This document shows positions 11,148 to 64,000 of a DNA stretch of 64,000 bases, in pieces (the stretch's first letter is position 1; the number at the start of each line of letters is the position of its first letter). The position numbers were made by a program, and so were the translations under genes. Origin of the DNA: Actinomyces wuliandei (GTDB taxonomy: Bacteria; Actinomycetota; Actinomycetes; Actinomycetales; Actinomycetaceae); the NCBI RefSeq assembly GCF_004010955.1, contig NZ_CP025227.1, positions 434,001 to 498,000 on the forward strand, read 5' to 3'. Below the pieces are notes generated by a model. That model made no database searches. It had not been told where the DNA came from and was given only the letters and a program-made list of their open reading frames with translations.

Positions 11148-11293
11148 CCCGGGGCGCCCCGGCTGCTTGGACCGCTGCGGTCCCGCGTGAGTGGCTCCGG
11201 TAAGCACCTGGTAGGCGGGTTGTACGCGGCCCGCCCCTCCGCTAGCGCGCAGCGTGCCTCCTGAGGGTTGCGGGCCTCAGGGAGGCGCGCTGC

Positions 11294-12145: not shown

Positions 12146-12410
12146 GTGTGGCAGGCTACACGCGTCGTGTCTCGGCTCGTCCGGCTCGCGCCGCCACGGC
12201 ATCGTTACCGCCTTCACTGAGGGCGGAACGGAGGTGCGGAACTCCCCTCCAGAGGGCGGAAAACCGCCTCACGTGGGCGAAAGCACCCCTGTCGCGGGCG
12301 TTTGCGGGGTGCTGCTGGGACCTTCGGCGACGTGACCCTGCGGCTGCAGTGGGGAAGGATAGGTGCTGACTACCTCTGTCAGTAACTGACCCCCTTAGGA
12401 AGGGACTCGT

Positions 12411-14258: not shown

Positions 14259-14287
14259 GCACCATCGCGGTGGCAGGCTGCCGTTGA

Positions 14288-14322
14288 CGAGGCTCCCGAC
14301 CCCCAGGGTCGGGAGCCTCGTT
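14288..14322 (+). terminator. intrinsic terminator after pckG
   Basis: A 15-bp stem (14288-14302 with 14306-14320, CGAGGCTCCCGAC...) with a 3-base loop lies 29 bases after the stop and is followed by TT. This is the clearest terminator in the window. Confidence 0.75.
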
Positions 14323-14476
14323 GCTGGCGCGTGGGCGCGATCTGTCTGCTGGCAGGGACGTGCTGTGGCTGGCTAGTCGTGTCCACGGCCAGCGGGATAC
14401 GGCCCTGCACCACCTGTGTCAGCGGTGTCTGCGTGTCCACGGCGGCCACAAATGGCCTGACGGGTCGTGCAAGTCT

Positions 14477-15448: not shown

Positions 15449-15613
15449 GGAGGTCGAATGGGTTCTGCGGACAGGGATGCTGTGCGGGTCCCCTGTGGAG
15501 TCCTTGCTGGGATGCCTGGAGCCTGGTTAGAGAAACCGCTGGTCGGCGCACAACCCGACTACGCCTGCCGCACCTACTGTCGTCACCCCGGCCTGTCTGG
15601 CTAGGCTAGGGCC

Positions 15614-47056: not shown

Positions 47057-48070
47057 TCAGGACGCAACGGAGCCCGTCACCCCTGCTGCCGCTCCCGGTG
47101 GGTCCTGGGGCGCTGTGAGTACGGACACTTCCTGGCGCAGCGCGTGCACCTCGCTGACGAGCTTGTCCAGGACCTCGGCGGTCTCCGTCGTCGTTGGGTG
47201 CTGGCTGGGGTGCGGGTCGGGCCCGGGGCGCGGCTGCCCCCCGGGGTCTGCGGCGGCGTCGCCTGCTTCCTCCGGCTTCTCAGTCTCGCGGCTGCTGCCG
47301 ACCTGGGCCATCGTGTCCACGATGACGGCGACGAACAAGTTGAGCATGGTGAAGGCGGAGACGAGGATGAAGGGGACAAAGAAGGCCCACGCCCAGGGGA
47401 AGTGCTCCATGACCGGGCGCACGATCCCCATGGACCAGCTCTCCAGGGTCATGACCTGGAAGAGGGTGTAGAGGGAGCGTCCCAGGGAGCCGAACCAGTC
47501 GGGGAAGGCCTCACCGAACATGGCCGTGGCCATGACTGCGGCGACGTAGAAGATCATGGTCATGAGGGCGGCGATGGCGCTGATACCCGGCAGGGACAGG
47601 AGGAGTGCCTCCACCACGCGCCGCAGGCTGGGCAGGAACTTGATGACCCTGAGCAGGCGCAGGATTCTCAAGGTCCGCAGGACCGAGAGGGGGCCGGCTC
47701 CGGGGACGAGCGCGACGGCCACCACCAGGAAGTCAAAGACGTGCCACCCGTTGCGGACAAAGCGGCTCGGCCCTATCGCGACCAGCGTGAGCACGATCTC
47801 GGTGACAAAGACTGTCAGGGAGGCGTGGTCCACCAGACGCAGTGCCCGGTAGGCCAGAGACCCCTGCTGGACAGCCGTCTCCAGGCCGATTGAGACACAG
47901 TTGACCACGATGACCGCCATGACCAGGTTCTGGACCCGGGGCGCCTCAAGGTAGTCCTCCAGGCGCTGACGCCAGGTGGTCCGTACGGGTGCCTTCTCCG
48001 GCGGCGCTGCGGCCGCGAGGGCCGGGGCGACTGAGTCCGGGTGAGCCGGGATGCTCCTTACCTGAGCCAC
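47057..48070 (-). CDS. voltage-gated sodium channel, NaVBac type
   Basis: A 337-residue single-domain six-TM ion channel from GTG 48070 (AGGAG 6 bases upstream). S1 lies near residues 46-64, S4 carries a gating-charge ladder LRTLRILRLLRVIKFL, and the pore loop holds the selectivity filter TLESWSM (about residues 207-213), identical to that of the Arcobacter channel NavAb. S6 (FTMLNLFVAVIVDTMAQV) and a C-terminal helix with heptad-like spacing (VLDKLVSEVHALRQEVSVL) fit a tetramer. Sodium selectivity is inferred from the filter. Confidence 0.92.
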   Translation of the reverse strand: MAQVRSIPAHPDSVAPALAAAAPPEKAPVRTTWRQRLEDYLEAPRVQNLVMAVIVVNCVSIGLETAVQQGSLAYRALRLVDHASLTVFVTEIVLTLVAIGPSRFVRNGWHVFDFLVVAVALVPGAGPLSVLRTLRILRLLRVIKFLPSLRRVVEALLLSLPGISAIAALMTMIFYVAAVMATAMFGEAFPDWFGSLGRSLYTLFQVMTLESWSMGIVRPVMEHFPWAWAFFVPFILVSAFTMLNLFVAVIVDTMAQVGSSRETEKPEEAGDAAADPGGQPRPGPDPHPSQHPTTTETAEVLDKLVSEVHALRQEVSVLTAPQDPPGAAAGVTGSVAS

Positions 48071-48390
48071 TCATCACTCCTGGGGTGCTTGTACTTCTGG
48101 GGACAGCCCGGGCTGCGTGGCACAGTCCGGTCTGCTCGGCCCGGTCAGGGGTGCGTGCGAGCAGAGGCTGACCGTGTGGCACCGTTGCGCGTCGGTGCGG
48201 CTGGTCGGGTTCCTGGTCCTGCCAGTGGCGAGCAGGAGCTGAGCCTAGGGGAGGCGGTGGGGTCTGTCAGCCCGAGTATCTGGGAGGACTCCTCGGGACG
48301 TCCCGTCAGCACTGCGGAGGAGCCTAGGGAGGTGCGTAAAGCCGGGGAAGTGGCGTAGAGGAGCTGAGGAGGGTTAGCACGTGGGCTCTG
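48071..48390. other. intergenic stretch between the channel gene and the IS remnant
   Basis: 320 bases with no convincing gene or strong repeat. In particular, no minus-strand frame here contains the missing C-terminal half of the flavin reductase found on the other side of the IS. Confidence 0.5.
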
Positions 48391-49942
48391 GCCTCGGGGT
48401 TTTGTGGTTGAGGGGCTGAGGCGGGGGTGAAGGTGTCGTTTCGTCTGGAGTGGTGTGGGTTGTTGGGGTCTGTCGTGTTTCAGGGGAGGGACAGCTTCGA
48501 GGTGGGGACTGCAGCAGGGTTGTGCTTGTTGGTGGGTGTCGGGACCGGCTGGGTCAACGTGCTTGCTCATGGTGGTGGAGTGCTGCTGGCCGAGACGGTG
48601 CGCGCCCGTGGGCTGGACGTGCTGCTGTCACAGGTTCTGGCGCCGTGGTCCAGGCTGCTGGCGCGCCATGACCCGGTCAAGGTCGTCCTCGACCTGGCGC
48701 TGTCGCTGGTGGTTGAGCGCGCGGTGGTCCTGGCCAGGGCGCGCCGCGCGGGCTGGACCCTGGCCGGAGCGTGGGCGCTGACGGCCGCTGTCAGCGCCCA
48801 GCGGCCGCTGGTCACTGATACCGGCGCCACCTTGGTCACCGCCCACCCTGACAATGAAGGAGGGGGGTGGCACCGACCTTCAAGAAGGGCAGGAAGGGGC
48901 TTTGGGCTCCGTCCCTTGACCGCGTGGACCGACCACGGTCCCCAAGGTGCCGGCGAGAACGCCGCGGTCATGCTGCGGCCCGCGAGCGCGGGGTCGGACA
49001 CCGCCGCCGACCATGAGGCTGTCATCGCCGTGGTGCTGGCCCGTGTGGGCCTGGGTCCCGGGCCCGGACGCAAGGTGCTCGTGCGCACCGACGCCGCTGG
49101 TGGGACCAAGGCCACCTTGGCCGCCCTGGAGCGCAGAGGGGTGTCCTGCAGCGTCGGACTCACCCTGCCCAGTGACATGTCGCGGGCCTGCAGGCTGGTC
49201 CCCGCCCAGGCCTGGACCCCTGCCTGCGGCGTCGACGCGGCTCCCGCGAGGCGGCGGACGTGGCAGGGCTGACGGACCTGGTCGACGTGGGCGGGTGGCC
49301 CAGGGCCACGCGTGTCATCGTGCGCCGCGAAAGACCGCGCCCCGGCGCCCGGCCCAGGCTCGACGACGTCGACGGCTGCCGGCTGACCGCCTTTGGGACC
49401 AGCACCAGGACCGGCCAGCCCGCCGACCTGGAGGCAGGCCACCGCCAGCGGGCCAGGTGCGAGGACCGTGTCCGCCGCGCAGGGCACCGGGGTCGACCGC
49501 GTGCTGCTGCAGGCCCTCGCGGCCAACCGCACCTGGTGCCAGGTCGTGGCCCTGGCCCGCGACACCCTCGCCTGGGCGCAGGTGCTCTGCCTGGCAGACC
49601 ACCCCGCCCGCAGGTGGGCGCCCAAGCCCGTGCGCCACCGCCTGCCCAGCGTGCCAGCTGTCATCACGCGCCACGCGCGGCGCACCACCACCCGCTGCAA
49701 GACCCCCAGCCCCCTTCGCCGACCTGCTGACCCCAGCGATCACCACCCTGCGCGCACGCCGACCCACAGCACCAGCAAACCACCACCCACCCACCAGCCC
49801 CAGGAAGGACCCGCCAGCAGGCAAGGCCCACCCACCGCGACCACACGCCCCACCCCGCCACACCCACACGCCACAACCAACCCCACCCCAACAACCCCGA
49901 ACCCCCACAAGCCCACCCACCCCACCCACGAAACATCGAGGC
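48391..49942 (+). mobile_element. degenerate IS1380-family insertion sequence
   Basis: The ends are imperfect inverted repeats: 48391-48410 (GCCTCGGGGTTTTGTGG...) and 49923-49942 on the other strand agree at 16 of 20 positions. The interior is a broken IS1380-type transposase. No target duplication is obvious. It marks the junction between the normal high-G+C chromosome and the lower-G+C biosynthetic region; exact termini are uncertain by a few bases. Confidence 0.65.
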
Positions 49943-50319: not shown

Positions 50320-53300
50320 TCATTGAATAGCACCATCGATCATCGAGCACACCTCTACGGATCTACGCTCCGCCGTGAACTTCCTCAGCACCTTCACGGT
50401 GTTGCCAAATGGACTAATGAGCGTATAAACGCCCTCCACGCTCAACGCGCGTTCAATCCATGAGTGCGCCGCACTATACGGTACTGGCCGGATCCCCTCA
50501 GCTTCGATTTCCAAGGCCTTAGGCCCCTGGAAGCTCATACCCCCCTCAGGCCACGCCGACCATGCTACCGAAATACTGCGGCCAGTCTGAGCCCGACTGC
50601 GTTCCGCAATATACGCTTCAACTGCTCTATTCGCCGCAGCATAGGCAGCGCACCCTACTGCTCCCGCATGCGCGGCGACCGAAGAGAAGGCAACAAAAAC
50701 GCCTGGCGCATCGACGCGAGTCGCAAGGTCCAGGTTAATTAACCCGCCGAGCTTTACTTCGACCTGGTCCTTGAGCTCATGCACATCACAGGCCACGAAT
50801 AGCCCTCCCGGCTCGGTTCCAGCAAGATGGTAGACCGCGCGGACCGGTCCGAGCTTGCTCCGCCAGTGATCAAGGCATCGTCTCAGGGCGGACATGTCTT
50901 TGACGTCGACTTGCTGATAGTAGACAGAATCACTAAGCAGATCGGACCGGTCCTCCGCCCGACCGATCGCAAGCACGGTTGCACCGTCATCAACGAGACG
51001 GTCGCAGAGATGCGATCCGATGAAGCCTGCGCCCCCTGTGACCAGGACGAAGCCTCCGCCCTCTGCACCACCGCCTAGTAGCCTCTGCTCGCTTTCCAGG
51101 CGCGGAATCTGGACAGGTTCGAGGACCTGCTCCTGTAGTACACCGCTCCGAACACGGTAGAGCCCACCTGCCCGGGACGCGTGCAACGCAGCAGAGCACC
51201 ACGACCATTCCGGCGGAGAGAGTAAGACTGCCGCGGAGACACCGGGAACCTCGGCTCGGAGGGTCTCAACAAGACCGGCTAGACCAGAAGCCACGATCTC
51301 GGCGCCTGGCTGGGCCTCAGGTACCACAAAGACCATCGTGCGCACGGACCCTGGCTCCATGCTGCCCATTCCCCTATAAACCTCCTGCACAGCAGTCATG
51401 CAGTCAAGCAAGACCTCTTGGGGGCCCTTCTCAAGACTCACGCGTAGTGTCAGACTTGAGTCACTCTCTCTCACCCATGAGGCGACTCCTGATAAACCGC
51501 CTTCAGGCCGAGAGGGCAGAGCCTCCTTTTGGCCCATGCCTCCATGGCCCGCGTGATCGAGCCGAGAGTCCCTCCAGGTTGGCTCGAGCCCAACGAAGCC
51601 GTCTGTCTCGTCGACGCCCCCTGAGAGCTCCTGCCCCCTCACACCCTTCAGAGCAACACACGGGGTGCCCGCGTCGTCGAAGAGCCACACGTCATGGCGC
51701 GTCCCCTCCGCCGCCTCCGTCACACGTACGAACCCCTCTCGGGTCGGAGCGCGGCGCAGTTCCACTGCCTCGGCGAAGACAGGGACTCGTGTCCCCTCTT
51801 TCCCGTTGAACGCCTCGAACAGCATCACGGCCTGGAACAGAGCATCCACGATGGGGATCGATAGTTCCCTGTCTTCGACCGCAGCGTGCTCGCTCAAACG
51901 AACATGTGCGAGTGCCTCGTCTGGGGACACCCAGAAGTCCTTAATGACCTGAAAGAGGGGACCATAATCGATCCGCTTGCCTTCGAACTCTCTTTTGCAT
52001 TCGTCGGTGCTGTAGTGGCGCGAGAAGGTTCTCCGATACGCCGTGAGCGGCGGCTCATCGTTCAGGCGGCTGCGGTCAACGCGCATGGAGCACAAGGTTG
52101 GGGCGCCATCTACCCGTCGTCGGAAACCGATCCGGTCGTCATCCCGCTCTACCAGCACGTCGGCCGCCGGCTCCCCCTGAAGTGTGAGCGGCGCCTGGAG
52201 CACCACGTTGCGAAGAGACACGTCACTGCTCGCATGGAGAAGTTGAGCAGCAGCAACGATCCAAGCAGCCCCTGGCAGGACCGGTTCTCCAGCCACGGAA
52301 TGCTCCGCCAGGAACCCGTCACGCGCGGTCACGCGCAGGATCTGCTCCCCTGAGGCAAATTCAAGAGGACGCCACCTGCAGCGCCCGGAGGAGGGCACTC
52401 TCTCAAGTGCCGAGTGCCAGAACCGCTGGGGCCGAAGACGCGACAGAGGCAACCGGGCCCGTCTTGGCTGGCTGGACGGGAGAGTGCTGAGCCGGGACCA
52501 GTCAGCCGTCTCCGCCGACACCTGCCACGCCTCGGCAACACTCTCGACCGAGCCTGAGCGCAATGCCACGTCAAGGGGCTCACTGCCATGCCCGACCGCG
52601 CCACCGTTCACGGAACGCAACGCCGATACAAGCTCGTCCCGGGTACTCGCAACGATGGCAGCACGCCGGCTGTCCTGCACACGGCCCCACCGCAGTGTAA
52701 AAGCAACATCCGCTAGAGGCACGTCTCTGCCTTCGTCCTCGAGCCAGCTCGCAAGACTGTTCGCGTACCAGTTCAGATCGGAGTCCGTTCGGGCACTTAG
52801 CACAAAAAACTCGGTGGCGTTGCGCTCCTGCCGGGGCTCGCACGCCGGCGCTTCCTCAAGCACGGCAAAGGCGTTCACGCCCCCAAAGCCGAAGGCACTG
52901 ACGGTCGCTCTCCGTGTGAGCCCTGCACTTTCGTTTACCGCCGGGTCGCTCCAATCGAGCCGCTGCCCACCAAGATGAATTAGAGACGGATCAAGATCGA
53001 TCCGAGGGTTCACGGTCTGCAGGTGCACCAGTGGCGGAATCTCCCTATTTTGTAGGGCGAGCACCGCCTTGATGAATCCCGCTACCCCAGCAGCAGCCTC
53101 GGCATGTCCTATCGCGGACTTGACCGATCCCACAGACACGGGGGTAGGCAGGCACTCCATGCCTTCCCGCTCAAGTTGCGTCCTAATCGCACGCTGAAAC
53201 GCGTCAAGCTCAATCGGGTCCCCCAGCACTGTGCCGGTGCCGTGAGACTCGTGGAGTCCAAGCCCTGCTACGCCCGGGCCAGCCTCCTCCAGAGCCTGCT

Positions 53301-56300
53301 CGATCAGGTTTGTCTGGGCTGCAACGTTTGGTGCGGTCAAGGCAGACGAGCGCCCTCCGTGGTTGATCCGGCACGTCCTGACAACCGCCCTGACCTGATC
53401 CCCATCAGCCAGAGCGGCCGACAGAGGCTTGAGTAGTACCAGCCCGATTCCTTCACTGCGTACGTATCCGTCAGCACGCGCATCAAACGTCTTGCACCGG
53501 CCATCTGCGGCGAGGACGCCGACCTTGGACAGGGCAATATGAGGCCTGGAATCAATCAGTACTGACACGCCGCCAGCCACAGCCATGGCACAGTCGCCAC
53601 GCTGAAGTGCTGAGACTGCATGATGAATCGCAACCAGTGAACTCGAACAGGTGGTATCGATCACCTCACTTGGACCTGACCAGTTGAGGGTATAGTTGAC
53701 TCGGTTTGCAATGATCGAGCGCCCCGTCCCGATCAGGCTGAGCTGATCCTGCACGACGCCTCTTTCTGCCAGCAACGCCCCGTACTCGTCCCCAGTCACT
53801 CCCAGAAACAGCCCCACGCTCTGGGGAGTAGTAGTTACCGGCGCGTACCCCGAGTCTTCCATCAACTGCCACACCCCGCTCAGGGCAAGTCGTTGCCGCG
53901 GATCCATCATCTCCGCCTCCCTCGGCGAGACTCGGAAACGGTCCGCGTCAAACCTGTCAACGTCGCTAAGGAACCCGCCCCACCGGGAGGTGGTTAGGTC
54001 ACGTCCTGCCTCATCACCGTAGACCGCCTGCCAGTCCCAACGGTCCTCAGGCACCTCCACCACGCAATCCCGCCCCTCGACGAGGTTGAGCCAGTACTGC
54101 TCCGCACTATTAGCCTCCGGCATTCGCGCATACAGCCCGACCACGGCGACAAGGTCCTCTGTGGCTGTGCTCGACGGAGGGGAACCAGCACCCAGACGCT
54201 CGCTCACCCCGTCCCGAGGAGCATCTTCCCCACCTCGGCTTGCTCCCTCTAGCCCAACCTTGTGACTTGCCGGTGCACCCTGACTCGGGGACGCCTCCGC
54301 CTGCACACCCCCACGTGAAGGAGACACACCGTCTCCGACGAGTCCGCTTACGAACTCAATCACCTCATCGAGTGAGGCCAGCGGAAGCAACTGGGCGGTC
54401 GTGACATCGCAGCCGAAGTTGTCACAAATCTGGTTAGCCAAGAGTGCATAGTGCAGCGAGTTGAAGCCCTGGTGCCCCAGGCCCAAGGAACCATCGAGGT
54501 CCTCAACTGAGCATTCGAGCACATCTGAGACGAAGTCCAGTAGCCAGCTCTCAATACTCGCACCGTCATCCCTATCGCGGGAGTCGCCACCCTCACTTCC
54601 AGCCGGCGACAACGGATGCTGATCGACCATTAGCAGAAGAGCCGCGTTGTCGAGCTTCCCATTCACCGTCGTGGGGTAGCCGCCCACCACGGTGATCCTG
54701 GACGGGATCATGTGTGCTGGCAGCAGATGTTCCAATCGCTCCTGCGCATGTCGATTCCTTGTTCCTGTACAGAAGCCGACGAGCGAACGCTTCATCGCGT
54801 TGGCCTGGCCCCCCTCCGTCGCTAGAGCGACGGGAGCGACGAATCCCGCCTCAGCCATGGCACGCTCAACCTCGCCGAGCTCGATTCGATGCCCGCGGAC
54901 CTTTACCTGGCGATCCGAGCGCCCCAGGAACTCGATCTCGCCGTTATCCATGAACCGGGCTCTGTCGCCCGTCCGATAGATCTTGCGGTTCTCGTCTCTC
55001 GGGTCAGGAACAAACGCTGCTCGAGTCTGCTCGGGGTCGTTGACGTATCCATCGCTCAGACACTCACCACCGATGTATAGATCTCCGGGGACCCCAGGGG
55101 GCTGCGGTTGCATTGATTCGTCAAGGACCCAGTACTCAGAGTTCTGGATCGGACGCCCATACGGGATCGATAGCCAATCGCTCGAGACCTGCGTAATCAG
55201 ATGAAGATTCGACCAGACCACGGCTTCTGTCGCCCCGCCGAGGGCGACGACCTGCGTTTGTGGCACCTCCGCGAGGCACCGACGAGCGAGTTCCAGCGGA
55301 ATCCAATCCCCGCTAAGGAAGGCAAGTCTCAATCGGCACTGCTGGACTAGCCGAAGGCCGATGATCTGTTCCAGAACAGGCTGAAAAAAAACCGGGGCTG
55401 AGTTCCAGAAAGTAATCCCTTCAGATGCGATGATGCGCGCGATTCTCCTCGGGTCAAGCCGATCCACCTCATTGACTACACGGATGGTAGCGCCTGCCGC
55501 CAACAGCCCGAACAGGTCAAAAATCGTCAGGTCGAATCCAGCCGCGTTGACCCAGGCCCCTTTGTCTTGAGGACCAATTCCAAACCTGGGAACCAGGTCC
55601 TGAAAGAGGTTGACGACCGGCCTGTGCCGCACCAACACCCCCTTGGGCGATCCGGTACTGCCGGAGGTGAAGACAATGTATGCCAGTGACTCTGCCGTTG
55701 ATGCATCTGGAACTACGGTATTCGCGCGAGCAAGGGGGTCTTCAAGCTCTGCAACTGTGACTGACTCGCCCTTGATCTGCTCGTCTGGGACAGACAGCAC
55801 TGTGAGCCGTGCTTGAGACTTCTCAATGCTCTTGTTGTGGCGCTCAGTTGGCTCACCGTGGTTGAGGGGTACGAAGGCTGCCCCGAGTCGCATCACTGCT
55901 AACAGGACAGCAGGCTGTCTCCGGTCGCGTTTCATTCGGACCGCGACGACGTCGCCGCATCCGATTCCGTGACCCTGGGAGAGGGCACGGGCGTACGCAT
56001 CAACGCGGTCCGAGAGTTCAGCATACGTCCATTTCTCGTGGTCGTCAGTGACCGCCACACTGCTGGGCCATGTCTTTGCAGCCCTATCGAAGAGCTGAAC
56101 GATCGTTGCGTCACGTTCGAATGGCGCGCTAGTTCTGTTTTGCCGTGCCTGGAATTCCTCGGCGTCCACATCTGCCTCACTAGCGTTCTGCTCAATGGCA
56201 CGCATGCCCTGCGAGTCGAGAGCCGCTTTGAAGCCCTTCAGCATTTCCTCAGTCTCCTTCGCATTCATCTGTGCTGTACCGACGCTTAGTTCGGCAGTCA

Positions 56301-59300
56301 CCTTACTCCCCGCCCCATAGACGAGACAGTCCACGACCACGCCCACTGTGTATGCCGCGGCGTGAGTGGCAGTCATCTCTGAGGCGGCGTTGGAATGCTG
56401 CCAGCTCAGGGCGTCGGTGAATGCGGTACGGAAGGGCGTGACTGAAGCGCCGAGGTATTCATGCGTCAAGGGAAACCAGTCTGTCCTTCGATTCTCGACG
56501 TCGTCCCTTCGTTGCGCCTTAACGCTTTCAAGGCTCTCATATTCGGCGCCGGGCAGAAGAAACCCAAACGTACTGAAGTCGCCGAGCGCAACCTCCCACG
56601 AGGGACGCTCCGTTCGATCGACATAATCGATGCAAATGGTTGCATGATGCGAGAGTTCTGCCACGCTCTTTAGCCCTCTACGGAACGCCCATGCAACAAG
56701 CGCGGCACTATCTGTTCTGGTCTGCCCGACAGGAACGGAGAAGTCTAAGGAGTAGACTCGCGTCTCTCCATACCCTGGCGTAGATGTAGATAAGGACGAG
56801 CGAGGGAGCGCCCCAGAAAGTCTCTCTAGGCGAGCACGCCAGTATTTCTCCCCACCGTTTGTGGCCGCGTGGTCTTTCTGCCACGTCGCATACTGAAGCG
56901 CGTCGTCCCGCTCCCGATCCAGATCTGTATCGCTGGTCGCCGAGAGTAATGATCGGGACACCAGTAGCGTCGAGACGGCGTCCAGAGAATGGCAATTGAA
57001 AGCGATAAAGAGGTAGTTAAGCTCGCCATGGGTTCCGACGGATAGACGAACCGGTGGCCACGCGCTCTGTGCAAGCGCGGCTGCCTCCCACTCTTCGACC
57101 TGCGACAGCCAGTCGCCTAGCTTGCTCGTGACCGATGCTTCGTAGCGTGTCACGGTCGGCGATAGCGCTCGACCGCTGAGTCGGAACTGTCCGTGTGGCG
57201 TCTGTACTGTGTGCAGGGCTTCGTGATGCAAGAAGAGAGCACGCCACCGTGCGAACACAGCTGGCAGCTGGTCTGCGTCAATGGCATACACGCGCACTGC
57301 ATACGCGACCGCGTTGTCTCTCGCCAACGCCCTCTGAGCTTGGTAGCTACGCATTGCCCGTGTTAGCGGCACCCGGGTAAGAGGCGCATCAGAGCCATCA
57401 CTGGCCGTGGTGCTCGCCTGTCCCTCAGACACAGAAAGGCCTTCAGTAAGGTACTGTGCAACGAGTTCGCGGTACTCGTCGAACAGCTCTCGCGCGCTTT
57501 CATCTCCCAATGCTTGCGTATCGACGTCCCAGTCCAGGAGCACCTCACCGCTCGCCTCCCGAGTCGCGTGAGCATGAATCTGGACCCCCGAGGTCACACT
57601 CAGGGATCTGGATACCGGGTAGCCACGCCCCCGTGCACGTTGGGTCACCGACGAGTACACCACCCGAGGCGGATCGATAGACCTCTTCCTCAGGATCTCT
57701 GTTCCTGTCATCGACCTGTACGTGAGATCTCGGTCCAGTTCCTCTTGCAGTTTCCAAGCAGCAGTTGCCCGCGCACCGACCTCGATCGGGTGGAGCATCA
57801 TCTCTGTGAAGGGCCCAACGACCGAATCAATGTCCTTCCAATCATGCGGACGGTCTGTAACCGTGAGAGCCACGAGAATCTGCTCCCGAGAACGATTGGC
57901 ACACCATTCTCGAAATATGCCAAACAGATACGTAAGGACCGGTACTCCGATTCGTTGCGCCTTCGTCTCAAGGACAGTCCTCTGCGCTGTCGTAAGGCGG
58001 TGGCTGAGTCTCATCCAGCCCTGGCTCTCCGCATCGGATGTCCTGGCTACGCGCAGTGCTTCCACGGTTGCCGGTCGGCACCCGCTGATCCGACCATCCC
58101 AATGCTTCAGTGCAGCTCGGCGAGCGTCATCGTTCCTCACTGACTCCTGGTCGCACCGAATGCCGAAGAACGCCCCATCGGGAATGTCTGGCCCGAGCTC
58201 CGCACCGTCGTATGCACTCCAGAGATCCCCCAGGGCGATGTGTGTACTCATAGCGTCTGCGACGAACGAGTCGACGCCCACGACAAGTTTGTCCGTCGTG
58301 GGCCCCCGAAGGATCCTGAGTGTCACCATCGGTCCCTCGGCCCACCCGGCAGCCTCAGCCAGCATTTCTGCTACGAGGGACTCCTCGGACTGCACCGGCC
58401 GGATGACCGGAACTGAATGCGAATCGGGCATCGCGATGTACTGACGCCCCAGCCGTGTCACCCTCGCCCGTAGCATTCCGTGTCGTTCGGTGACCCGATT
58501 CCAAGCGCTGGAGAGCCGATCTTCGTCAAGGCGAACTCCCGGATCGATGAACATGACATTCCAAGCACCAACCCGCTGTTCAACAGGTCCTCGCTGCATT
58601 TTCGCAGCCAGGTACACGCCCTGAAGGTCCGTCAAGGGGGCCGAGTCGGCATCGACCAGCCGCATACGAGGCCGGTCCTGTTCAAGGAATGCCTCATTGG
58701 AACGCGCGGCCCCCGAACCGGGTGCAAGGGTGCGCTGAAGTGAGGCAAGGCTCGCCGTCTCTTGTAGCTCAAACAATGATGGACTACTTCCATACTGCTC
58801 CTGAAGCGAGTCCTTCAGGCTCACTGCACGAATCGAGTCCAAGCCGAGATCGCGTAGCGGCGTCTCCGCGGAGGCTTCCCAGTCCTGGTCCCCGACACAG
58901 CGGGTGCAAAGCCTTTCAAGTACGGTGCTCAATCCACCGTTTGAGCCTCGCGCCGCCTCCCAATCACAGCGACCTCCACCACTGTTCTGCCATCCGTTGC
59001 TGGCTGCAGTTCCCTCCCCCGATACGGGCAGGTGAACGACGCTAGCGCCGGAACTAGGCTCGGCTGGCCACGGGCCGTCCACATGCTGGTGGTGAGCTCC
59101 CTGTGACTCGATCAGGTGAAGTTGCTCGATGAGCTCCTGGACACTTCCAACAAGGAGCGTGACCGCTTCCCTCTCTCGGGACCGGCGGTTTAGCGTTGTG
59201 GAAATGCCCGACAGAGAGAGGGCCGTAGACTGCTCTAGCGCATGAGCCAGGTCACCTGCATACGAACGCAGGGCAGCGTCATCGGCTGCGCTGAGATGAA

Positions 59301-62300
59301 TAGTATCCGCCGCAGCGTTGCGCTCCTCTGGCGCACCTTGCCGCGTCGGCTCCATGCGAAGGATGGCATGCGCGTTTGTTCCGCTCATACCGAAGGCACT
59401 TACGCCAGCATACGGCTTGCTAGTAGGCCAGTCCGTGGCCCGGCGCGGAAAGACGAATGACTCTAGTGCCTCCCCCGTGATGGCAGGGTTAGCAGCGTTA
59501 AACCCGGCGAGGGGAGGGAGCTCCCGACGGTGCATACACAGGACCGTTTTGATGACCCCAAGCAGGCCAGCCGCGGCATTAGTGTGCCCGATATTTGCTT
59601 TTAGCGAGCCGAGGGTTATCGGGCCTGTTCTACCTTCGAGACGCAGAAGTGCCTGGATCTCGACAGGGTCACCTAAGGCTGTGCCGGTCCCGTGTGTTTC
59701 GATATACGCAAGCCGCTCTAATGCGACAGGGTTGGCCCCATAGATCTGGTTGAGTAGCATCGCCTGGGATGCACCATTTGGCGAGGTCAGCGATTTTGAG
59801 AGACCATCGTGATTTAGGCGGGTGTCCACAACTGTCGCCCAAGGCTCCCGACCAGCCGCATCAGCGTCCCCTGGCCGTTCTAGGTAAATGCATGCGGAGC
59901 CTTCCGCAGGCACGAACCCACTTGCGGCGGCGTCAAATGGGCGGCATCGCCCATCCCTTGATGTCACGCCAAGCATGGACGTCTTGCGTAGGAACTCAGG
60001 ATCGCTCATCACACACGCCGCTACCACGAGGGCGGACTCGCACTCACCTGACTCGATAGAGTGACGAGCAAGATGCAGGGCCGTGATCCCCGACGAGCAA
60101 GTCGTGTTCACGGTCATGGCAGGACCCCTGACATCAAGCCAGTGGGCGATCCGACCGGCGAGGATTGCCTCATCCGAGCCTAGGAACGCCTCTGGGCTTC
60201 GCGAGACGCTTGCATCGTCCTCAAGCGCCGCAAAGCCGCTCGGGCGACACGCGACAAATACTCCGACGGAGCGCCCCCTAAGGGACTCTCTCGATATCGC
60301 GGCGTCATCTAGGCACTGCCTGACACCGGAGAGCATTACCCTGAGTTGGGGGTCCATCCGGAGTGCCTCCTCCGGGCTCATCCCATAGAGTCGAGCGTTT
60401 AGCCCTAGGTCTTCACCGAGGAATGCCCCGCTCAATTCACAGTCATCAGGCGACTCCAGGGGCCACCGTCCAAGGGGAACTGACGCCTCTGCCACCGCAC
60501 CGTTTCTCACCATTTGCCACAGTGCATCGAGTGAGTCTGCCCCCGGCACCCTTGCGGACATGCCGGTGATTGCAAGGCCACCCCGTTCTGCATCATGTGT
60601 GGACGCCGTTGCCGCAGGTTCGGGCAATGGCCTCAAAGTTGTTAGATGTTCAAGGAGTCTTCCGGGAGTCACATGATCGAAGAATTCAGTCGCACTCAGG
60701 GCGACCCCAAGACGCGCGCTTAACTCTTGCGCCATCGCGACAGTGCTGAGTGAGTTCAACCCAAGTAGATCCCAGGTCTCCTGGTTGTGCTCTTCCGTGA
60801 GCCGCCGTCCAGTTACCGCCTGATATGCAGCGCGCATGGCATCACCCGCGCTTGATGACTCGGAGTTCACCTCGTTGTCCATGTGCCCTGACGCAAGGAT
60901 CTTCCCGAGCGCATCCCGGTCGAGCTTGCCCGTGGGGAGTTTCGGCAGCGCCTTCACTTGTACAAGCCGTGACGGGACCATGTGCCGTGGCAGAATATCG
61001 GAGACAAGCCGTCGGACGTTGCGGAGGTCAAGAGCGTGGTCAGTCACCACAGCCGCATGCAGTTCCGACCAAGCCTCCGTGTCGCCAGTTTCACTGACAG
61101 CTGCCGCTGCACCAACCACACCGGGAACTTCACGGAGGGCCCTCTCGATGGCCTCCAAGTCCAGCACCAGCCCGTTCAGCTTCACCTGATCGCGAACTCT
61201 GCCGAGCAACAGGAAGCCGCCGTCCTCAAGCATCCTTGCGCGATCGCCCGTTCGGTACGCTCGACCGAGGCCCTCGATCTCACAGAACCTGGTCTCATTC
61301 AGAGACTCGTCTTGCCAGTATCCAAGTGCAACCCCTTCCCCTGCTACGCAGAGCTCCCCCTCCTTGCCGTCGGGGAGACGTTCTCCATGTTCATCCAAGA
61401 TGGCGACCCGCACGCCATCGATCGGGTAAAATAGTGGCTCCCCGCTGCTAACGCGAAGTCCTGCCGCGATCGTGTTGGCTTCAGTGGCGCCGTAGTCCTC
61501 GAGAAGCTGCGCATCGGGCAAAAGACGGCGGGATAGATCGACCACTCGATCAGGCAGCGTATTCCCACCAACCGTGACCACCCGCAGCGGCGGTACCACC
61601 GCCAAACCTAGATGGCCCATCTCTGTCAACAGGATTCTGAGAAGATCCGGCGTGAGTGTGATCCGTGTCACCGAGAACGCCGCCAGCCGCCTTAGCCACC
61701 GAGCTGGATCGTGCAAGTCTTGCCCGCCAATGAAAAGCGTCGGAGTGCCCATTGCGAGCCCTCCGAAGATTTCCCACAGGGAGGGCATTATCGACACCGT
61801 CGGCCTGGCTGCGCACACCTCATCCTCGCTCGGCGGAAATGCCTTGATCATCCAGCGAAACCGATTGACTGGCTGTCGATGACAGTGAAGAACCCCCTTG
61901 GGACTTCCTGACGAACCCGATGTGAACATCAGCAGGAATGGCGTCTCCGCGCTACTAACGCACGGCACCTCCAAGGGGTCAGGCTGCTGCTCGAGCTCAC
62001 TGATCCATGGGTGGGACTCCGGGAGGTCCGACTCATCAGCCAGTACCATTGTTGCCCCGGCTCGCTCGATGAGGTCCCTCCGGTAACGAAGCGGTAGGTC
62101 AGGTGAGAGGGGCACCACGATCGCTCCCATATGCATGAGCGCCAAGGCGGCTGAGACGTACTCGGCGGAAGCCGTACCGTTCAGACCTACGCAGTCGCCC
62201 GGCCCCACCGCTTTATCCGCAAAGAGCCCAATGTACTGACGTTTCCTCGTGGACAACTCCTCGAAAGTCCACCGCTTCCCATCTGCATCGATGAGCGCGA

Positions 62301-62382
62301 CGGATCCCGGGTTCGCTTCGCTGACTGCCTCAATCCATCGGTCAATCGACGGGTATGTATCTGTCATTACAGCCCTTCCCAT
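50320..62382 (-). CDS. trans-AT hybrid PKS/NRPS megasynthase
   Basis: 4,020 residues from ATG 62382 (AAGGAGGG 9 bases upstream; ATG 62367 also possible). Domains: acyl/adenylate ligase (about 10-510, FTSGSSGSPKG near 153); carrier (Ser544); KS1 (600-1025, Cys762-His897-His933); carrier (Ser1183); heterocyclization domain (1245-1620, D1371xxxxD1376); second Cy-like domain (1665-2060, N1796xxxxD1801, GDFSTF); cysteine-type A domain (2085-2590; FDLTIFD, WNSAP, FLSGDW, GGATEAVVWS); carrier (Ser2642); KS2 (2740-3170, Cys2912-His3047-His3093); DH (3320-3590, His3361 in HSVAGEPVLPG, Asp3513 in DALFQ); KR (3620-3990, VTGGAGFIGS, Tyr3914). There is no AT, no oxidase, no final carrier and no TE. The likely product is an acyl-ketide-thiazoline extended by one reduced, dehydrated ketide. 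Codon use and G+C differ from the left-hand genes. Confidence 0.93.
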   Translation of the reverse strand: MGRAVMTDTYPSIDRWIEAVSEANPGSVALIDADGKRWTFEELSTRKRQYIGLFADKAVGPGDCVGLNGTASAEYVSAALALMHMGAIVVPLSPDLPLRYRRDLIERAGATMVLADESDLPESHPWISELEQQPDPLEVPCVSSAETPFLLMFTSGSSGSPKGVLHCHRQPVNRFRWMIKAFPPSEDEVCAARPTVSIMPSLWEIFGGLAMGTPTLFIGGQDLHDPARWLRRLAAFSVTRITLTPDLLRILLTEMGHLGLAVVPPLRVVTVGGNTLPDRVVDLSRRLLPDAQLLEDYGATEANTIAAGLRVSSGEPLFYPIDGVRVAILDEHGERLPDGKEGELCVAGEGVALGYWQDESLNETRFCEIEGLGRAYRTGDRARMLEDGGFLLLGRVRDQVKLNGLVLDLEAIERALREVPGVVGAAAAVSETGDTEAWSELHAAVVTDHALDLRNVRRLVSDILPRHMVPSRLVQVKALPKLPTGKLDRDALGKILASGHMDNEVNSESSSAGDAMRAAYQAVTGRRLTEEHNQETWDLLGLNSLSTVAMAQELSARLGVALSATEFFDHVTPGRLLEHLTTLRPLPEPAATASTHDAERGGLAITGMSARVPGADSLDALWQMVRNGAVAEASVPLGRWPLESPDDCELSGAFLGEDLGLNARLYGMSPEEALRMDPQLRVMLSGVRQCLDDAAISRESLRGRSVGVFVACRPSGFAALEDDASVSRSPEAFLGSDEAILAGRIAHWLDVRGPAMTVNTTCSSGITALHLARHSIESGECESALVVAACVMSDPEFLRKTSMLGVTSRDGRCRPFDAAASGFVPAEGSACIYLERPGDADAAGREPWATVVDTRLNHDGLSKSLTSPNGASQAMLLNQIYGANPVALERLAYIETHGTGTALGDPVEIQALLRLEGRTGPITLGSLKANIGHTNAAAGLLGVIKTVLCMHRRELPPLAGFNAANPAITGEALESFVFPRRATDWPTSKPYAGVSAFGMSGTNAHAILRMEPTRQGAPEERNAAADTIHLSAADDAALRSYAGDLAHALEQSTALSLSGISTTLNRRSREREAVTLLVGSVQELIEQLHLIESQGAHHQHVDGPWPAEPSSGASVVHLPVSGEGTAASNGWQNSGGGRCDWEAARGSNGGLSTVLERLCTRCVGDQDWEASAETPLRDLGLDSIRAVSLKDSLQEQYGSSPSLFELQETASLASLQRTLAPGSGAARSNEAFLEQDRPRMRLVDADSAPLTDLQGVYLAAKMQRGPVEQRVGAWNVMFIDPGVRLDEDRLSSAWNRVTERHGMLRARVTRLGRQYIAMPDSHSVPVIRPVQSEESLVAEMLAEAAGWAEGPMVTLRILRGPTTDKLVVGVDSFVADAMSTHIALGDLWSAYDGAELGPDIPDGAFFGIRCDQESVRNDDARRAALKHWDGRISGCRPATVEALRVARTSDAESQGWMRLSHRLTTAQRTVLETKAQRIGVPVLTYLFGIFREWCANRSREQILVALTVTDRPHDWKDIDSVVGPFTEMMLHPIEVGARATAAWKLQEELDRDLTYRSMTGTEILRKRSIDPPRVVYSSVTQRARGRGYPVSRSLSVTSGVQIHAHATREASGEVLLDWDVDTQALGDESARELFDEYRELVAQYLTEGLSVSEGQASTTASDGSDAPLTRVPLTRAMRSYQAQRALARDNAVAYAVRVYAIDADQLPAVFARWRALFLHHEALHTVQTPHGQFRLSGRALSPTVTRYEASVTSKLGDWLSQVEEWEAAALAQSAWPPVRLSVGTHGELNYLFIAFNCHSLDAVSTLLVSRSLLSATSDTDLDRERDDALQYATWQKDHAATNGGEKYWRARLERLSGALPRSSLSTSTPGYGETRVYSLDFSVPVGQTRTDSAALVAWAFRRGLKSVAELSHHATICIDYVDRTERPSWEVALGDFSTFGFLLPGAEYESLESVKAQRRDDVENRRTDWFPLTHEYLGASVTPFRTAFTDALSWQHSNAASEMTATHAAAYTVGVVVDCLVYGAGSKVTAELSVGTAQMNAKETEEMLKGFKAALDSQGMRAIEQNASEADVDAEEFQARQNRTSAPFERDATIVQLFDRAAKTWPSSVAVTDDHEKWTYAELSDRVDAYARALSQGHGIGCGDVVAVRMKRDRRQPAVLLAVMRLGAAFVPLNHGEPTERHNKSIEKSQARLTVLSVPDEQIKGESVTVAELEDPLARANTVVPDASTAESLAYIVFTSGSTGSPKGVLVRHRPVVNLFQDLVPRFGIGPQDKGAWVNAAGFDLTIFDLFGLLAAGATIRVVNEVDRLDPRRIARIIASEGITFWNSAPVFFQPVLEQIIGLRLVQQCRLRLAFLSGDWIPLELARRCLAEVPQTQVVALGGATEAVVWSNLHLITQVSSDWLSIPYGRPIQNSEYWVLDESMQPQPPGVPGDLYIGGECLSDGYVNDPEQTRAAFVPDPRDENRKIYRTGDRARFMDNGEIEFLGRSDRQVKVRGHRIELGEVERAMAEAGFVAPVALATEGGQANAMKRSLVGFCTGTRNRHAQERLEHLLPAHMIPSRITVVGGYPTTVNGKLDNAALLLMVDQHPLSPAGSEGGDSRDRDDGASIESWLLDFVSDVLECSVEDLDGSLGLGHQGFNSLHYALLANQICDNFGCDVTTAQLLPLASLDEVIEFVSGLVGDGVSPSRGGVQAEASPSQGAPASHKVGLEGASRGGEDAPRDGVSERLGAGSPPSSTATEDLVAVVGLYARMPEANSAEQYWLNLVEGRDCVVEVPEDRWDWQAVYGDEAGRDLTTSRWGGFLSDVDRFDADRFRVSPREAEMMDPRQRLALSGVWQLMEDSGYAPVTTTPQSVGLFLGVTGDEYGALLAERGVVQDQLSLIGTGRSIIANRVNYTLNWSGPSEVIDTTCSSSLVAIHHAVSALQRGDCAMAVAGGVSVLIDSRPHIALSKVGVLAADGRCKTFDARADGYVRSEGIGLVLLKPLSAALADGDQVRAVVRTCRINHGGRSSALTAPNVAAQTNLIEQALEEAGPGVAGLGLHESHGTGTVLGDPIELDAFQRAIRTQLEREGMECLPTPVSVGSVKSAIGHAEAAAGVAGFIKAVLALQNREIPPLVHLQTVNPRIDLDPSLIHLGGQRLDWSDPAVNESAGLTRRATVSAFGFGGVNAFAVLEEAPACEPRQERNATEFFVLSARTDSDLNWYANSLASWLEDEGRDVPLADVAFTLRWGRVQDSRRAAIVASTRDELVSALRSVNGGAVGHGSEPLDVALRSGSVESVAEAWQVSAETADWSRLSTLPSSQPRRARLPLSRLRPQRFWHSALERVPSSGRCRWRPLEFASGEQILRVTARDGFLAEHSVAGEPVLPGAAWIVAAAQLLHASSDVSLRNVVLQAPLTLQGEPAADVLVERDDDRIGFRRRVDGAPTLCSMRVDRSRLNDEPPLTAYRRTFSRHYSTDECKREFEGKRIDYGPLFQVIKDFWVSPDEALAHVRLSEHAAVEDRELSIPIVDALFQAVMLFEAFNGKEGTRVPVFAEAVELRRAPTREGFVRVTEAAEGTRHDVWLFDDAGTPCVALKGVRGQELSGGVDETDGFVGLEPTWRDSRLDHAGHGGMGQKEALPSRPEGGLSGVASWVRESDSSLTLRVSLEKGPQEVLLDCMTAVQEVYRGMGSMEPGSVRTMVFVVPEAQPGAEIVASGLAGLVETLRAEVPGVSAAVLLSPPEWSWCSAALHASRAGGLYRVRSGVLQEQVLEPVQIPRLESEQRLLGGGAEGGGFVLVTGGAGFIGSHLCDRLVDDGATVLAIGRAEDRSDLLSDSVYYQQVDVKDMSALRRCLDHWRSKLGPVRAVYHLAGTEPGGLFVACDVHELKDQVEVKLGGLINLDLATRVDAPGVFVAFSSVAAHAGAVGCAAYAAANRAVEAYIAERSRAQTGRSISVAWSAWPEGGMSFQGPKALEIEAEGIRPVPYSAAHSWIERALSVEGVYTLISPFGNTVKVLRKFTAERRSVEVCSMIDGAIQ

Positions 62383-62505
62383 ACCTGAATACCCTCCTTG
62401 CAATGCCTCACGGAGACACACTCCGATGCACACGGGGTCGGCACCGAAACGGCCCTCGAGCCGTCAGGCAGTGCCAGCGCAGAACCGCATCGGAAACTCG
62501 CTCGC

Positions 62506-64000
62506 TTACGAAGCGCCCTCAGGTGCTTCAAACGCCACATCAACGAGCCATTCATATTCTTCTCCGGTCGTTCCATCCACGGGGAGGAGCTCGGACAGCT
62601 TGCCTTTCAGAACCTTCCCCGTCACACCTCGAGGTATGAATTCCGGATGCACGATGTAGACACCACCAAGACAGACCATCCCACGCCCTTCGAGTCCTTC
62701 GTTGAACGTTCTCAGAAGCTCGGCCGCAGCCGGACCGGTCGTGTCTACACCCCAAGCGACCGCGACCGGCACAACGACCCCATCGTCCTTGGCGGGACCA
62801 CGGACGACAACACAGTCAACCACTCTGTCGTCGAGTGTTAGCAGATACTCCTCCGTAAGCAGGCTGTAGCATACTCCGGAGGGGGTCTTCATCGCGTCAG
62901 TCACGCGGTCTACGTGGAAGAAGCGCCCCGATTCGTCGCGGTAGACAAGATCTCCTGTGAGAAAGAACCCATCGATCCTTGACCGGGCCGTTAATGCACT
63001 GTCGTTCCAGTACCCAACCGTTACCGACGGAGACTTGATACCCAGCCGTCCGACATCCCCGGGAGGACAGAGGTGACCGTCGTCGTCAAACACCCTTGCT
63101 GATACCCAGGCGTGCGGGCGGCCGACGCAGCGCTCATAGAGCGAACTCTGCGCTGTGTGTTGAGTGGGGAAGCTGATATGTCCCATCTCAGACGAACCTA
63201 GTCCATCAACGTATATCGATCCACTTGTCCGCTTTCCCCCACGGACACTATGTCCCTCTGCCACTAGACGGCGAATATGCGCCTCGTGGGAGGCGTCCCC
63301 GCTGCTGATCCAGTACCGAACCGAGGAGAAGTCACGACGGCCAGCGTGGCGAGTCGCCAGCTCAACGAAGGTGTGCGGAAATGCCGAAACACTCTCCGGG
63401 TGGACTTCCTCGATCCTGTCAGCAAGAGCATCGGGATCCGTGGATGGCACCACATGGACCCGGCCGCCGTCAAGGACTGCGTGTATCAGGAAAGCCAGCG
63501 ATGCGTTATGAGTGGTGGGTAGCGCATGCACCCGCACTCCCCCAGGAACGCCTGCCTGCCGCGCAATGTTGTCGCGAATTCCGTGGAACCATTGCCCGTG
63601 GGCAAGAGTCGCCGCTTTCGGAAACCCTGTGCTGCCTGATGTGTGCGCGATTAGCACTGGGTCGCCGTATGAGTGCCGGAACCTCTCCATATCCGTGGCT
63701 GACTCCGCCGGTAGCGAGGTTAGGGCCACGTCAACGCAGAAACTGTCTCTGCAGAAGTCCCGAGAAAGGCCAGCGCGCTGAGCTGCCGAGCAGACACTCC
63801 CTTTGATGCCAACCTCAGAGAGATAGCGCTCCGCTACTTCCGGCTTCATGGCTCCGTTGACAACCGCAGCGATCGCCCCTATGGACGACAGGGCGCACAG
63901 GTGCACAAGTGCGTGAAAACCTTCATCGACGTATACGCCCACAACGTCGTAGGGCTGGATCCCCTTGTTCCGGTACCAAGTTGCCCATCGTTCAGATAAG
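62506..64000 (-). CDS. AMP-forming acyl ligase (5' end beyond window)
   Basis: The frame is open to the right edge (LSERWATWYRNKGIQPYDV before the first internal GTG at 63942), so the start is outside. About 498 residues are visible. The P-loop is LIAHTSGSTGFPKAATL, the A5-like motif GLGSSEMGHISFPTQ, the hinge FLTGDLVYRDESGRFFHVDR, and the C-terminal catalytic-Lys segment IPRGVTGKVLKGKL. This is the acyl/aryl-CoA (or acyl-ACP) ligase superfamily. It lies 123 bases upstream of the megasynthase in the same direction, so it probably activates a building block or starter acid for it; the substrate is unknown. Confidence 0.85.
   Translation of the reverse strand, partial: LSERWATWYRNKGIQPYDVVGVYVDEGFHALVHLCALSSIGAIAAVVNGAMKPEVAERYLSEVGIKGSVCSAAQRAGLSRDFCRDSFCVDVALTSLPAESATDMERFRHSYGDPVLIAHTSGSTGFPKAATLAHGQWFHGIRDNIARQAGVPGGVRVHALPTTHNASLAFLIHAVLDGGRVHVVPSTDPDALADRIEEVHPESVSAFPHTFVELATRHAGRRDFSSVRYWISSGDASHEAHIRRLVAEGHSVRGGKRTSGSIYVDGLGSSEMGHISFPTQHTAQSSLYERCVGRPHAWVSARVFDDDGHLCPPGDVGRLGIKSPSVTVGYWNDSALTARSRIDGFFLTGDLVYRDESGRFFHVDRVTDAMKTPSGVCYSLLTEEYLLTLDDRVVDCVVVRGPAKDDGVVVPVAVAWGVDTTGPAAAELLRTFNEGLEGRGMVCLGGVYIVHPEFIPRGVTGKVLKGKLSELLPVDGTTGEEYEWLVDVAFEAPEGAS

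What the first reader, a model, noticed from the sequence alone, without database searches (positions are those of the whole stretch)
50320..64000. Trans-AT thiazoline-forming PKS/NRPS locus with no obvious described counterpart
One 4,020-residue protein reads ligase-carrier-KS-carrier-Cy-Cy-A(Cys)-carrier-KS-DH-KR, with a second acyl ligase upstream. Neither KS is followed by an acyltransferase domain, only by short post-KS linkers, so malonyl units must come from a trans AT. Established logic of these families predicts: activated acid loaded, one ketide extension, condensation and cyclization with cysteine to a thiazoline, then a further reduced and dehydrated extension. I do not recall a characterised pathway with this domain order; that is memory, not a search.
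Basis: partly seen in the sequence, partly recalled or inferred. Interest (0 to 1): 0.85.

Follow-up and report, generated by a model that had tools for sequence, protein, structure and literature searches.

The report
Orphan aryl-diazo thiazoline assembly line
A bacterium of the genus Actinomyces carries a foreign 30-kb gene cluster that, by its sequence, should build a sulfur-ring molecule from an amino-phenol starter and turn its amino group into a reactive diazo group using nitrite; I found no known product, so it is a concrete target for discovery.

Summary
The protein at 50320-62433 (-) reads ligase-ACP-KS-ACP-Cy-Cy-A-PCP-KS-DH-KR, neither KS has an AT behind it, and the second A-domain pocket reads as Cys. 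Past the window end the cluster continues to about 79445: a discrete AT, type II thioesterase, HpaB-like hydroxylase, a DhnA-type aldolase, a DHQS-II enzyme, a SAP-domain protein, an MFS exporter and a second PKS (ACP-KS-KR-ACP-TE).

The interpretation needs one large correction. The "second acyl ligase" (62506-64266) belongs with the nitrite-activating ATP-dependent diazotases: the 12 best structural matches are chains of CmaA6 and Tri17. With the aldolase/DHQS-II pair this predicts a 3-amino-4-hydroxybenzoate starter whose amine is diazotised. No nitrite-making (nitrosuccinate) gene was found; narG is present.

The island has 60.8% GC against about 70% around it and lies between two IS1380-family copies. 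Its Cy-Cy region was not found in 48 genus-mates or 393 sampled class genomes. Homologues occur in Pseudovibrio axinellae, and a like-built cluster on Sinorhizobium medicae plasmids. I found no characterised product. KS1's type is unsettled. New variant of a known kind; chemistry inferred.

The parts
50320..62433 (-). PKS1: A0(ligase)-ACP-KS1-ACP-Cy1-Cy2-A(Cys)-PCP-KS2-DH-KR, 4037 aa (4020 from Met18 at 62382)
62506..64000 (-). ATP-dependent diazotase-family enzyme, 586 aa; the gene starts beyond the window at continued position 64266 (contig 498266). The rest of the cluster lies beyond the window too and is listed with coordinates in the Full report section
48384..49898 (+). IS1380-family copy, left border of the foreign island (the right-border copy is beyond the window, continued 79674-81187)

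Best explanation
This is a horizontally acquired trans-AT PKS-NRPS cluster for an aryl-thiazoline polyketide whose aromatic amine is diazotised. Proposed course: (1) the aldolase and DHQS-II enzyme make 3-amino-4-hydroxybenzoate (3,4-AHBA). (2) The N-terminal A0 domain loads it on ACP0. (3) KS1 adds one malonyl unit, left as the beta-ketone, supplied by the discrete AT. (4) Cy1/Cy2 and the Cys-specific A domain form a thiazoline, giving a 2-(aroylmethyl)thiazoline-4-carbonyl chain. (5) KS2-DH-KR adds a C=C ketide, whose ACP lies at the N-terminus of PKS2. (6) KS3-KR adds a last ketide, apparently left as the alcohol, since no DH is recognised in PKS2. (7) The TE, with Cys in the nucleophile position, releases it. 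(8) The HpaB-like enzyme hydroxylates the ring. (9) The diazotase adenylates nitrite and converts the aryl amine, ortho to the phenol, to an o-quinone diazide. Shown by sequence: domain order, motifs, enzyme families. Inferred: all substrates, the order of steps 8-9, and the product.
For: Diazotase: phmmer against PDB gives four sequences at 294-301 bits (8ztz, 9xb8, 9bq0, 8tf7), the next (malonyl-CoA synthetase) 79 bits. A model built from 16 sequences (pLDDT 83.4) has chains of CmaA6 and Tri17 as its 12 best PDB matches (E 1.7e-49 to 4.2e-38), the next, feruloyl-CoA synthetase, 1.5e-33. Tri17 = 9BQ0/8TF7 and the diazotase role of CreM/AvaA6/CmaA6 are described in PMC11705231 and PMC10777205. 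A Streptomyces homologue scoring the same on the AvaA6 model (356.8 against our 357.7 bits) lies, with two genes between, near a protein that passes the nitrosuccinate lyase cut-off (788.6 against 650). Starter: the aldolase and DHQS-II lie in the cluster; the genome has its own aroB above cut-off, so the DHQS-II is not needed for the shikimate pathway; A0 lacks the Asp of amino-acid A domains and its M-P-W, D and N-T-I positions recur in 7 of 7 relatives (position numbering recalled). Trans-AT. Cys: pocket D-L-F-N-F-S-L-V-W, near-constant in the family (code recalled). Conservation of the set: the S. medicae plasmid cluster has the same domain series split differently, plus DHQS-II (42%), aldolase (33%), HpaB (49%; next listed plasmid hit 35%), diazotase-like (36%) and DUF6434 (26%) proteins. 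For 4 pairs the diazotase and PKS1 homologues report the same longest-contig length (25668, 31340, 26697, 38964), so they probably lie together.
Against: One of the four PDB matches, 9xb8, is deposited as a fatty-acid-CoA ligase; I do not know its activity. The diazotase is far below the AvaA6 equivalog cut-off (357.7 against 975), and the DHQS-II and aldolase are below the 3,4-AHBA-specific cut-offs (261.3 against 750; 70.6 against 500), with a general DHQS-II subfamily model (299.3) and ADH synthase models (119.8, 105.9) scoring higher; the HpaB-like protein is below its cut-off too (268.5 against 480.2). No CreE-like match (the tool notes that an empty answer without a positive genome shows nothing, and NCBIfam names no family for the query) and no nitrosuccinate lyase above cut-off (two weak hits, 52 and 33 bits). 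KS1 leans to the cis-AT side. S. medicae KS1 falls elsewhere in the KS tree, so that cluster is not a simple orthologue. I found no product.
Confidence: 0.65

Rival explanations
1. Diazotisation-dependent deamination: the diazo group is made and then reductively removed as in avenalumic and p-coumaric acid pathways, so the final product has a 4-hydroxyphenyl end and no N-N bond. (This shares all earlier steps with the best explanation, so the odds overlap.)
For: The closest solved enzyme is CmaA6, which works in exactly that route; the starter pathway is the same.
Against: No oxidoreductase that looks like the AvaA7 step was seen among the cluster genes; I had no AvaA7 sequence and did not search the rest of the genome for it.
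Confidence: 0.25
2. One reading: 62506-64266 is an acyl or aryl ligase that supplies a starter or extender.
For: It is an ANL-superfamily protein with a Pfam AMP-binding hit; general CoA-ligase models score up to 135 bits; one of its four best PDB sequence matches, 9xb8, is deposited as a fatty-acid-CoA ligase.
Against: The AvaA6 diazotase model scores 357.7; sequence and fold matches both put diazotases first by a wide margin; the GDxxHxxH and GSSE blocks of the diazotases are present, and PKS1 already has its own loading ligase.
Confidence: 0.08
3. An aryl-thiazoline siderophore of the pyochelin/yersiniabactin sort.
For: Aryl-type starter domain, tandem Cy and Cys A domain.
Against: A KS and ACP lie between the loading ACP and the Cy domains, so the ring would not be attached directly to the phenol; no siderophore receptor or salicylate gene among the cluster genes; AHBA-type genes and a diazotase instead.
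Confidence: 0.07
4. A silent or decaying passenger left by mobile elements. (Concerns expression, so it overlaps with the chemistry above.)
For: IS1380 copies on both sides and a broken transposase-like remnant between PKS2 and the DHQS-II gene; no relative of the Cy-Cy region in 48 genus-mates.
Against: The two synthase frames are open over 12.1 and 6.3 kb; motifs mostly intact; 95%-identical versions of the diazotase (71 members) and of the compared part of PKS1 (242 members) recur in public assemblies.
Confidence: 0.1

Closest known systems
ava/cma clusters (avenalumic acid, p-coumaric acid; PMC10777205)
   Same: 3,4-AHBA-type aldolase and DHQS-II genes, aryl loading by an adenylating ligase, ATP-dependent diazotase; CmaA6 is the best structural match
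   Different: There a type II highly reducing PKS, ANS genes (in ava and cma) and a denitrifying reductase; here a modular trans-AT PKS-NRPS with thiazoline formation, no ANS genes found, no AvaA7-like gene seen in the cluster
Tri17, triacsin N-nitrosylase (9BQ0, 8TF7; PMC11705231)
   Same: Same diazotase branch of the ANL superfamily by sequence and fold
   Different: Tri17 acts on a hydrazone in a different pathway
Pseudovibrio axinellae AD2 trans-AT PKS-NRPS orphan cluster (PMC5563371)
   Same: P. axinellae proteins P0006 (54%) and P0136 (42% over the Cy-Cy-A part) are homologues of the diazotase and PKS1; the paper reports a trans-AT PKS-NRPS cluster in that strain, KSs on independent branches. 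That P0136 belongs to that cluster is my inference
   Different: P0136 ends after the A domain; the paper has no word beginning diazo or thiazol in its main text, and no product is named in the passages I saw
Sinorhizobium medicae plasmid cluster (NZ_CP149880.1 viewed; five more records match)
   Same: Same domain series, DHQS-II, aldolase, HpaB, diazotase-like and DUF6434 genes
   Different: Split after Cy2; KS1 placed apart from ours in the KS tree; has SagB-type oxidase, B12 radical-SAM and PPTase; its diazotase has an OsmC-like tail; no discrete AT listed in the 41.7 kb viewed

Membership tests
ATP-dependent diazotase (CreM/AvaA6/CmaA6/Tri17) | Closer to solved diazotases than to acyl-activating ANL enzymes | tested here: met
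   (exception: 9xb8, deposited as a fatty-acid-CoA ligase, scores alike)
ATP-dependent diazotase (CreM/AvaA6/CmaA6/Tri17) | Conserved Glu of the GSSE block (taken as the Mg-binding Glu; equivalence to CreM E352 inferred) | tested here: met
   Present here; a G-[ST]-[ST]-E pattern in 120 of 120 listed homologues; E352 role in passages of PMC11705231
ATP-dependent diazotase (CreM/AvaA6/CmaA6/Tri17) | Passes the AvaA6 equivalog cut-off | tested here: not met
   357.7 against 975 bits; so not an AvaA6 equivalog
ATP-dependent diazotase (CreM/AvaA6/CmaA6/Tri17) | Nitrite-dependent N-N bond formation | not testable with these tools
   needs enzyme assay
ava/cma-type cluster | ANS pathway (CreE/CreD) in the genome | tested here: not met
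   (the CreE test is the weaker one); 72 of 134 ava-like clusters also lack it in the cluster (PMC10777205)
ava/cma-type cluster | Type II KS-CLF assembling the chain | tested here: not met
   modular type I PKS instead
ava/cma-type cluster | 3,4-AHBA synthase pair | tested here: inconclusive
   both families present, specific cut-offs not reached
trans-AT PKS | KS modules without AT plus a discrete AT | tested here: met
trans-AT PKS | KSs fall in the trans-AT clan | tested here: inconclusive
   KS2 and KS3 yes; KS1 clade on the cis-AT side of a split with SH-aLRT 97 (59 KSs, quick tree)
Cys-heterocyclising NRPS module | DxxxxD Cy motif and Cys A-domain pocket | tested here: met
   Cy1 DSFVAD; Cy2 NCHSLD (first Asp replaced); A pocket (code recalled)
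IS composite transposon | Matching target duplications or an empty site | tested here: not met
   no matching short repeats by eye; the right flank is not beside the left flank in any of 8 relatives' loci and lies far away in G015

The most novel reading that the evidence does not exclude
The first modular trans-AT PKS-NRPS that ends in an aryl diazo group, and one that takes nitrite from nitrate respiration or the surroundings instead of making it with dedicated ANS enzymes, so product formation would follow nitrate supply. The CH2 between the aryl ketone and the thiazoline is an active methylene, so diazonium coupling there could join two molecules as a hydrazone (the chemistry of the tasikamide precedent is recalled). 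'First' rests on memory and on the paper searches named in Tried and rejected.
Probability: 0.3. Interest if true: 0.78.

Novelty: new variant of a known kind. Interest (0 to 1): 0.6.

Why it matters
The review passages I saw (PMC11705231) place diazotases in the cremeomycin, tasikamide, spinamycin, avenalumic acid and p-coumaric acid pathways; I saw none there with a modular trans-AT PKS-NRPS. A scattered orphan family with a shared gene set in Actinomyces, a Pseudovibrio and rhizobial plasmids gives a defined genome-mining target, and the nitrite question (72 of 134 ava-like clusters lack their own nitrite genes, PMC10777205) becomes testable in a bacterium that has narG.

Tried and rejected
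Rejected: second acyl ligase (see rivals). Rejected as proof: composite transposon, since no target duplication matched by eye and no empty site was found. The related-loci scan of genome contigs gave 5 loci (own or very near genomes may be left out) that match mainly in KS, KR and DH domains; beyond these only AT (2 loci) and A-domain-level hits (1 locus) were seen at E <= 1e-8. A single-sequence model of the SAP protein was poor (pLDDT 59, pTM 0.31) and was not searched. DUF6434: role unresolved; in one Niallia plasmid it stands outside such a cluster. KS tree: KS hits shorter than 330 residues, and all of L015 and L074, were left out. Diazotase tree: 17 of the 120 listed homologues were used. 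Paper searches with no hit: 3,4-AHBA with trans-AT and thiazol, S. medicae trans-AT, diazo with thiazoline and trans-AT PKS, DUF6434. The oral Actinomyces searches listed 3 and 8 papers; passages of two were seen. The Xenorhabdus bovienii trans-AT search listed 6 papers, none read for it beyond PMC5563371 passages. Papers: PMC10777205 parts 1-2 of 4 and passages; PMC11705231, PMC5563371, PMC8549736, PMC6469967 passages only; all others search listing only.
Full report
Setting. The window is bases 434001-498000 of a single 3.11-Mb contig. The genus is Actinomyces as judged by NarG homologues: among the best-scoring named hits are Actinomyces sp. 565 (83%), A. trachealis and A. respiraculi (81%). 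Species and habitat were not established. Coordinates above 64000 continue the window (contig = coordinate + 434000).

Observation. Confirmed. The domain order is right. Past the window the cluster continues on the same strand, with short overlaps or small gaps between most genes.

Genes of the cluster, all on the minus strand, in continued coordinates: PKS1 50320-62433; diazotase-family enzyme 62506-64266 (586 aa); DhnA/DeoC-type aldolase 64263-65090 (275 aa); SAP_new25-domain protein 65115-65750 (211 aa; homologous to DUF6434 proteins, though the DUF6434 model itself does not hit it); discrete AT 65747-66643 (298 aa); type II TE 66640-67566 (308 aa); HpaB-like hydroxylase 67626-69167 (513 aa); PKS2 69136-75408 (2090 aa); then a 1.6-kb stretch; DHQS-II 77033-78184 (383 aa); MFS exporter 78186-79445 (419 aa; best NCBIfam model a Cmx/CmrA efflux transporter, below cut-off, 187.7 against 400). 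IS1380-family copies: 48384-49898 and 79674-81187, both plus. PKS2 begins with the ACP that the KS2-DH-KR module of PKS1 lacks, then KS3, a stretch without Pfam hit, KR, ACP and an alpha/beta-hydrolase TE. The TE has Cys where Ser is usual, as does the S. medicae TE (read).

The upstream enzyme. Against NCBIfam the best model is the AvaA6 diazotase (357.7 bits, cut-off 975), next 135 bits. Against PDB sequences four entries score 294-301 bits and the next 79. Two of the four are Tri17 (identified in PMC11705231); one is CmaA6 (named); the fourth, 9xb8, is deposited as a fatty-acid-CoA ligase and I do not know its activity. An AlphaFold model from 16 sequences has CmaA6 and Tri17 chains as ranks 1-12. 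Of the 120 listed homologues, 120 have a G-[ST]-[ST]-E pattern and 114 a GD[AS]xHxxH pattern; the two A domains of PKS1 have neither. In a quick tree of 25 proteins (17 of the 120 listed homologues) it sits with P0001-P0007, beside Xenorhabdus (P0010) and Regiella (P0013) proteins (the tool warned of long branches in the outgroup and plasmid rows). This is family evidence, not proof of activity.

Starter and nitrite. The aldolase and DHQS-II families are those taken to make 3,4-AHBA in the ava and cma pathways (PMC10777205, with GriI/GriH recalled), but neither protein reaches the specific cut-offs. For the DHQS-II, the BagC/FevH 3,4-AHBA model (261) outscores each DHQS-II equivalog model (at most 234) but not the general subfamily model (299); for the aldolase the ADH synthase models (120, 106) outscore BagB/FevI (71). 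The genome has a canonical aroB. No match was found with a CreE-like Streptomyces query; that query is CreE-like by its place beside a nitrosuccinate lyase, NCBIfam gives it no family, and it matches its counterpart in another Streptomyces at 72%. No nitrosuccinate lyase passes the cut-off (best 52 bits). narG is present above cut-off. PMC10777205 reports that 72 of 134 ava-like clusters lack ANS genes in the cluster and lists exogenous nitrous acid as one option.

Assembly line. Pocket residues read as D-L-F-N-F-S-L-V-W for the second A domain, close to the recalled Cys code; A0 lacks the amino-acid Asp and its key positions recur in 7 of 7 relatives. Cy1 has DxxxxD; Cy2 has NxxxxD. KS2 and KS3 match best in PDB to PKSs that are named AT-less or PksJ, or that I recall as trans-AT. 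KS1's best single-domain matches are cis-AT (the top hit sums two domains). In a 59-KS tree the KS1 clade (SH-aLRT 100) lies, with one AT-less KS of a Streptomyces plasmid, on the same side of a split (97) as the nine AT-linked KSs of L070/L073; KS2, KS3 and S. medicae KS1-KS3 lie on the other side, among 33 reference AT-less KSs and one AT-linked KS, L016. So KS1 may descend from a cis-AT line although no AT follows it. Three AT hits in the genome: the cluster's, FAS I's and one near 62.6 kb. Two PPTases lie elsewhere.

Island. GC is 60.8% between the IS copies against 70.9% and 69.4% outside. The two 1515-bp IS1380-family copies are direct and 99.7% identical; one more full and two deleted copies are in the genome. 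The Cy-Cy region has no match in 393 other sampled genomes of the class (E <= 1e-40); in the genus (48 others), 11 genomes hit the ACP-Cy-Cy-A query at E <= 1e-30, but no hit reaches the first 805 of 1421 positions, that is, they are A-domain matches.

Relatives. PKS1 (residues 1160-2720 compared): P0121 at 95% (242 members), P0122-P0124 at 44-48%, P0131 at 41%, P0136 (P. axinellae) at 42%. Diazotase: P0001 at 95% (71 members), P0002-P0007 at 50-56%. For P0002/P0124, P0003/P0123, P0005/P0131 and P0006/P0136 the longest-contig lengths coincide, which I take as linkage; P0001/P0121 and P0004/P0122 do not coincide. The S. medicae plasmid locus L029 has the same series of domains and five shared accessory families; six S. 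medicae records match the diazotase, DUF6434 and HpaB queries, of which I viewed one. PMC5563371 (passages) reports a trans-AT PKS-NRPS cluster only in P. axinellae AD2 among the strains studied, 61% similar by antiSMASH to one in Xenorhabdus bovienii. Actinomyces had one MIBiG entry when PMC8549736 was written (passage).

Verdict. Novel in combination rather than in kind; the chemistry is a prediction.

Noticed in passing
window-continued 75409-77032 (L009:9409-11032): No cluster gene; plus-strand frames read like pieces of a transposase (ISL3-like by eye) broken by stops and frame changes; GC 67%, unlike the cluster.
   Followed up: partly
contig 62.6-69 kb: A pair of KS hits and an AT, possibly an aryl-polyene-like or other type II cluster.
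   Followed up: no
L030 (Klebsiella michiganensis plasmid) 10723-16656: DHQS-II, ADH-synthase-type aldolase and a divergent diazotase-like gene together on a plasmid from a fruit-fly isolate, with no PKS gene listed within about 10-15 kb on either side.
   Followed up: partly
L029 20055-22184: The S. medicae diazotase-like protein carries a C-terminal OsmC-like domain.
   Followed up: no
65115-65750 (continued): SAP-domain protein inside the cluster; its S. medicae counterpart (with DUF6434) overlaps the diazotase gene by a few bases. A DNA-binding self-protection role is only a guess.
   Followed up: partly
window 47057-48070 (-): Ion_trans-family channel gene just outside the left IS copy.
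   Followed up: no
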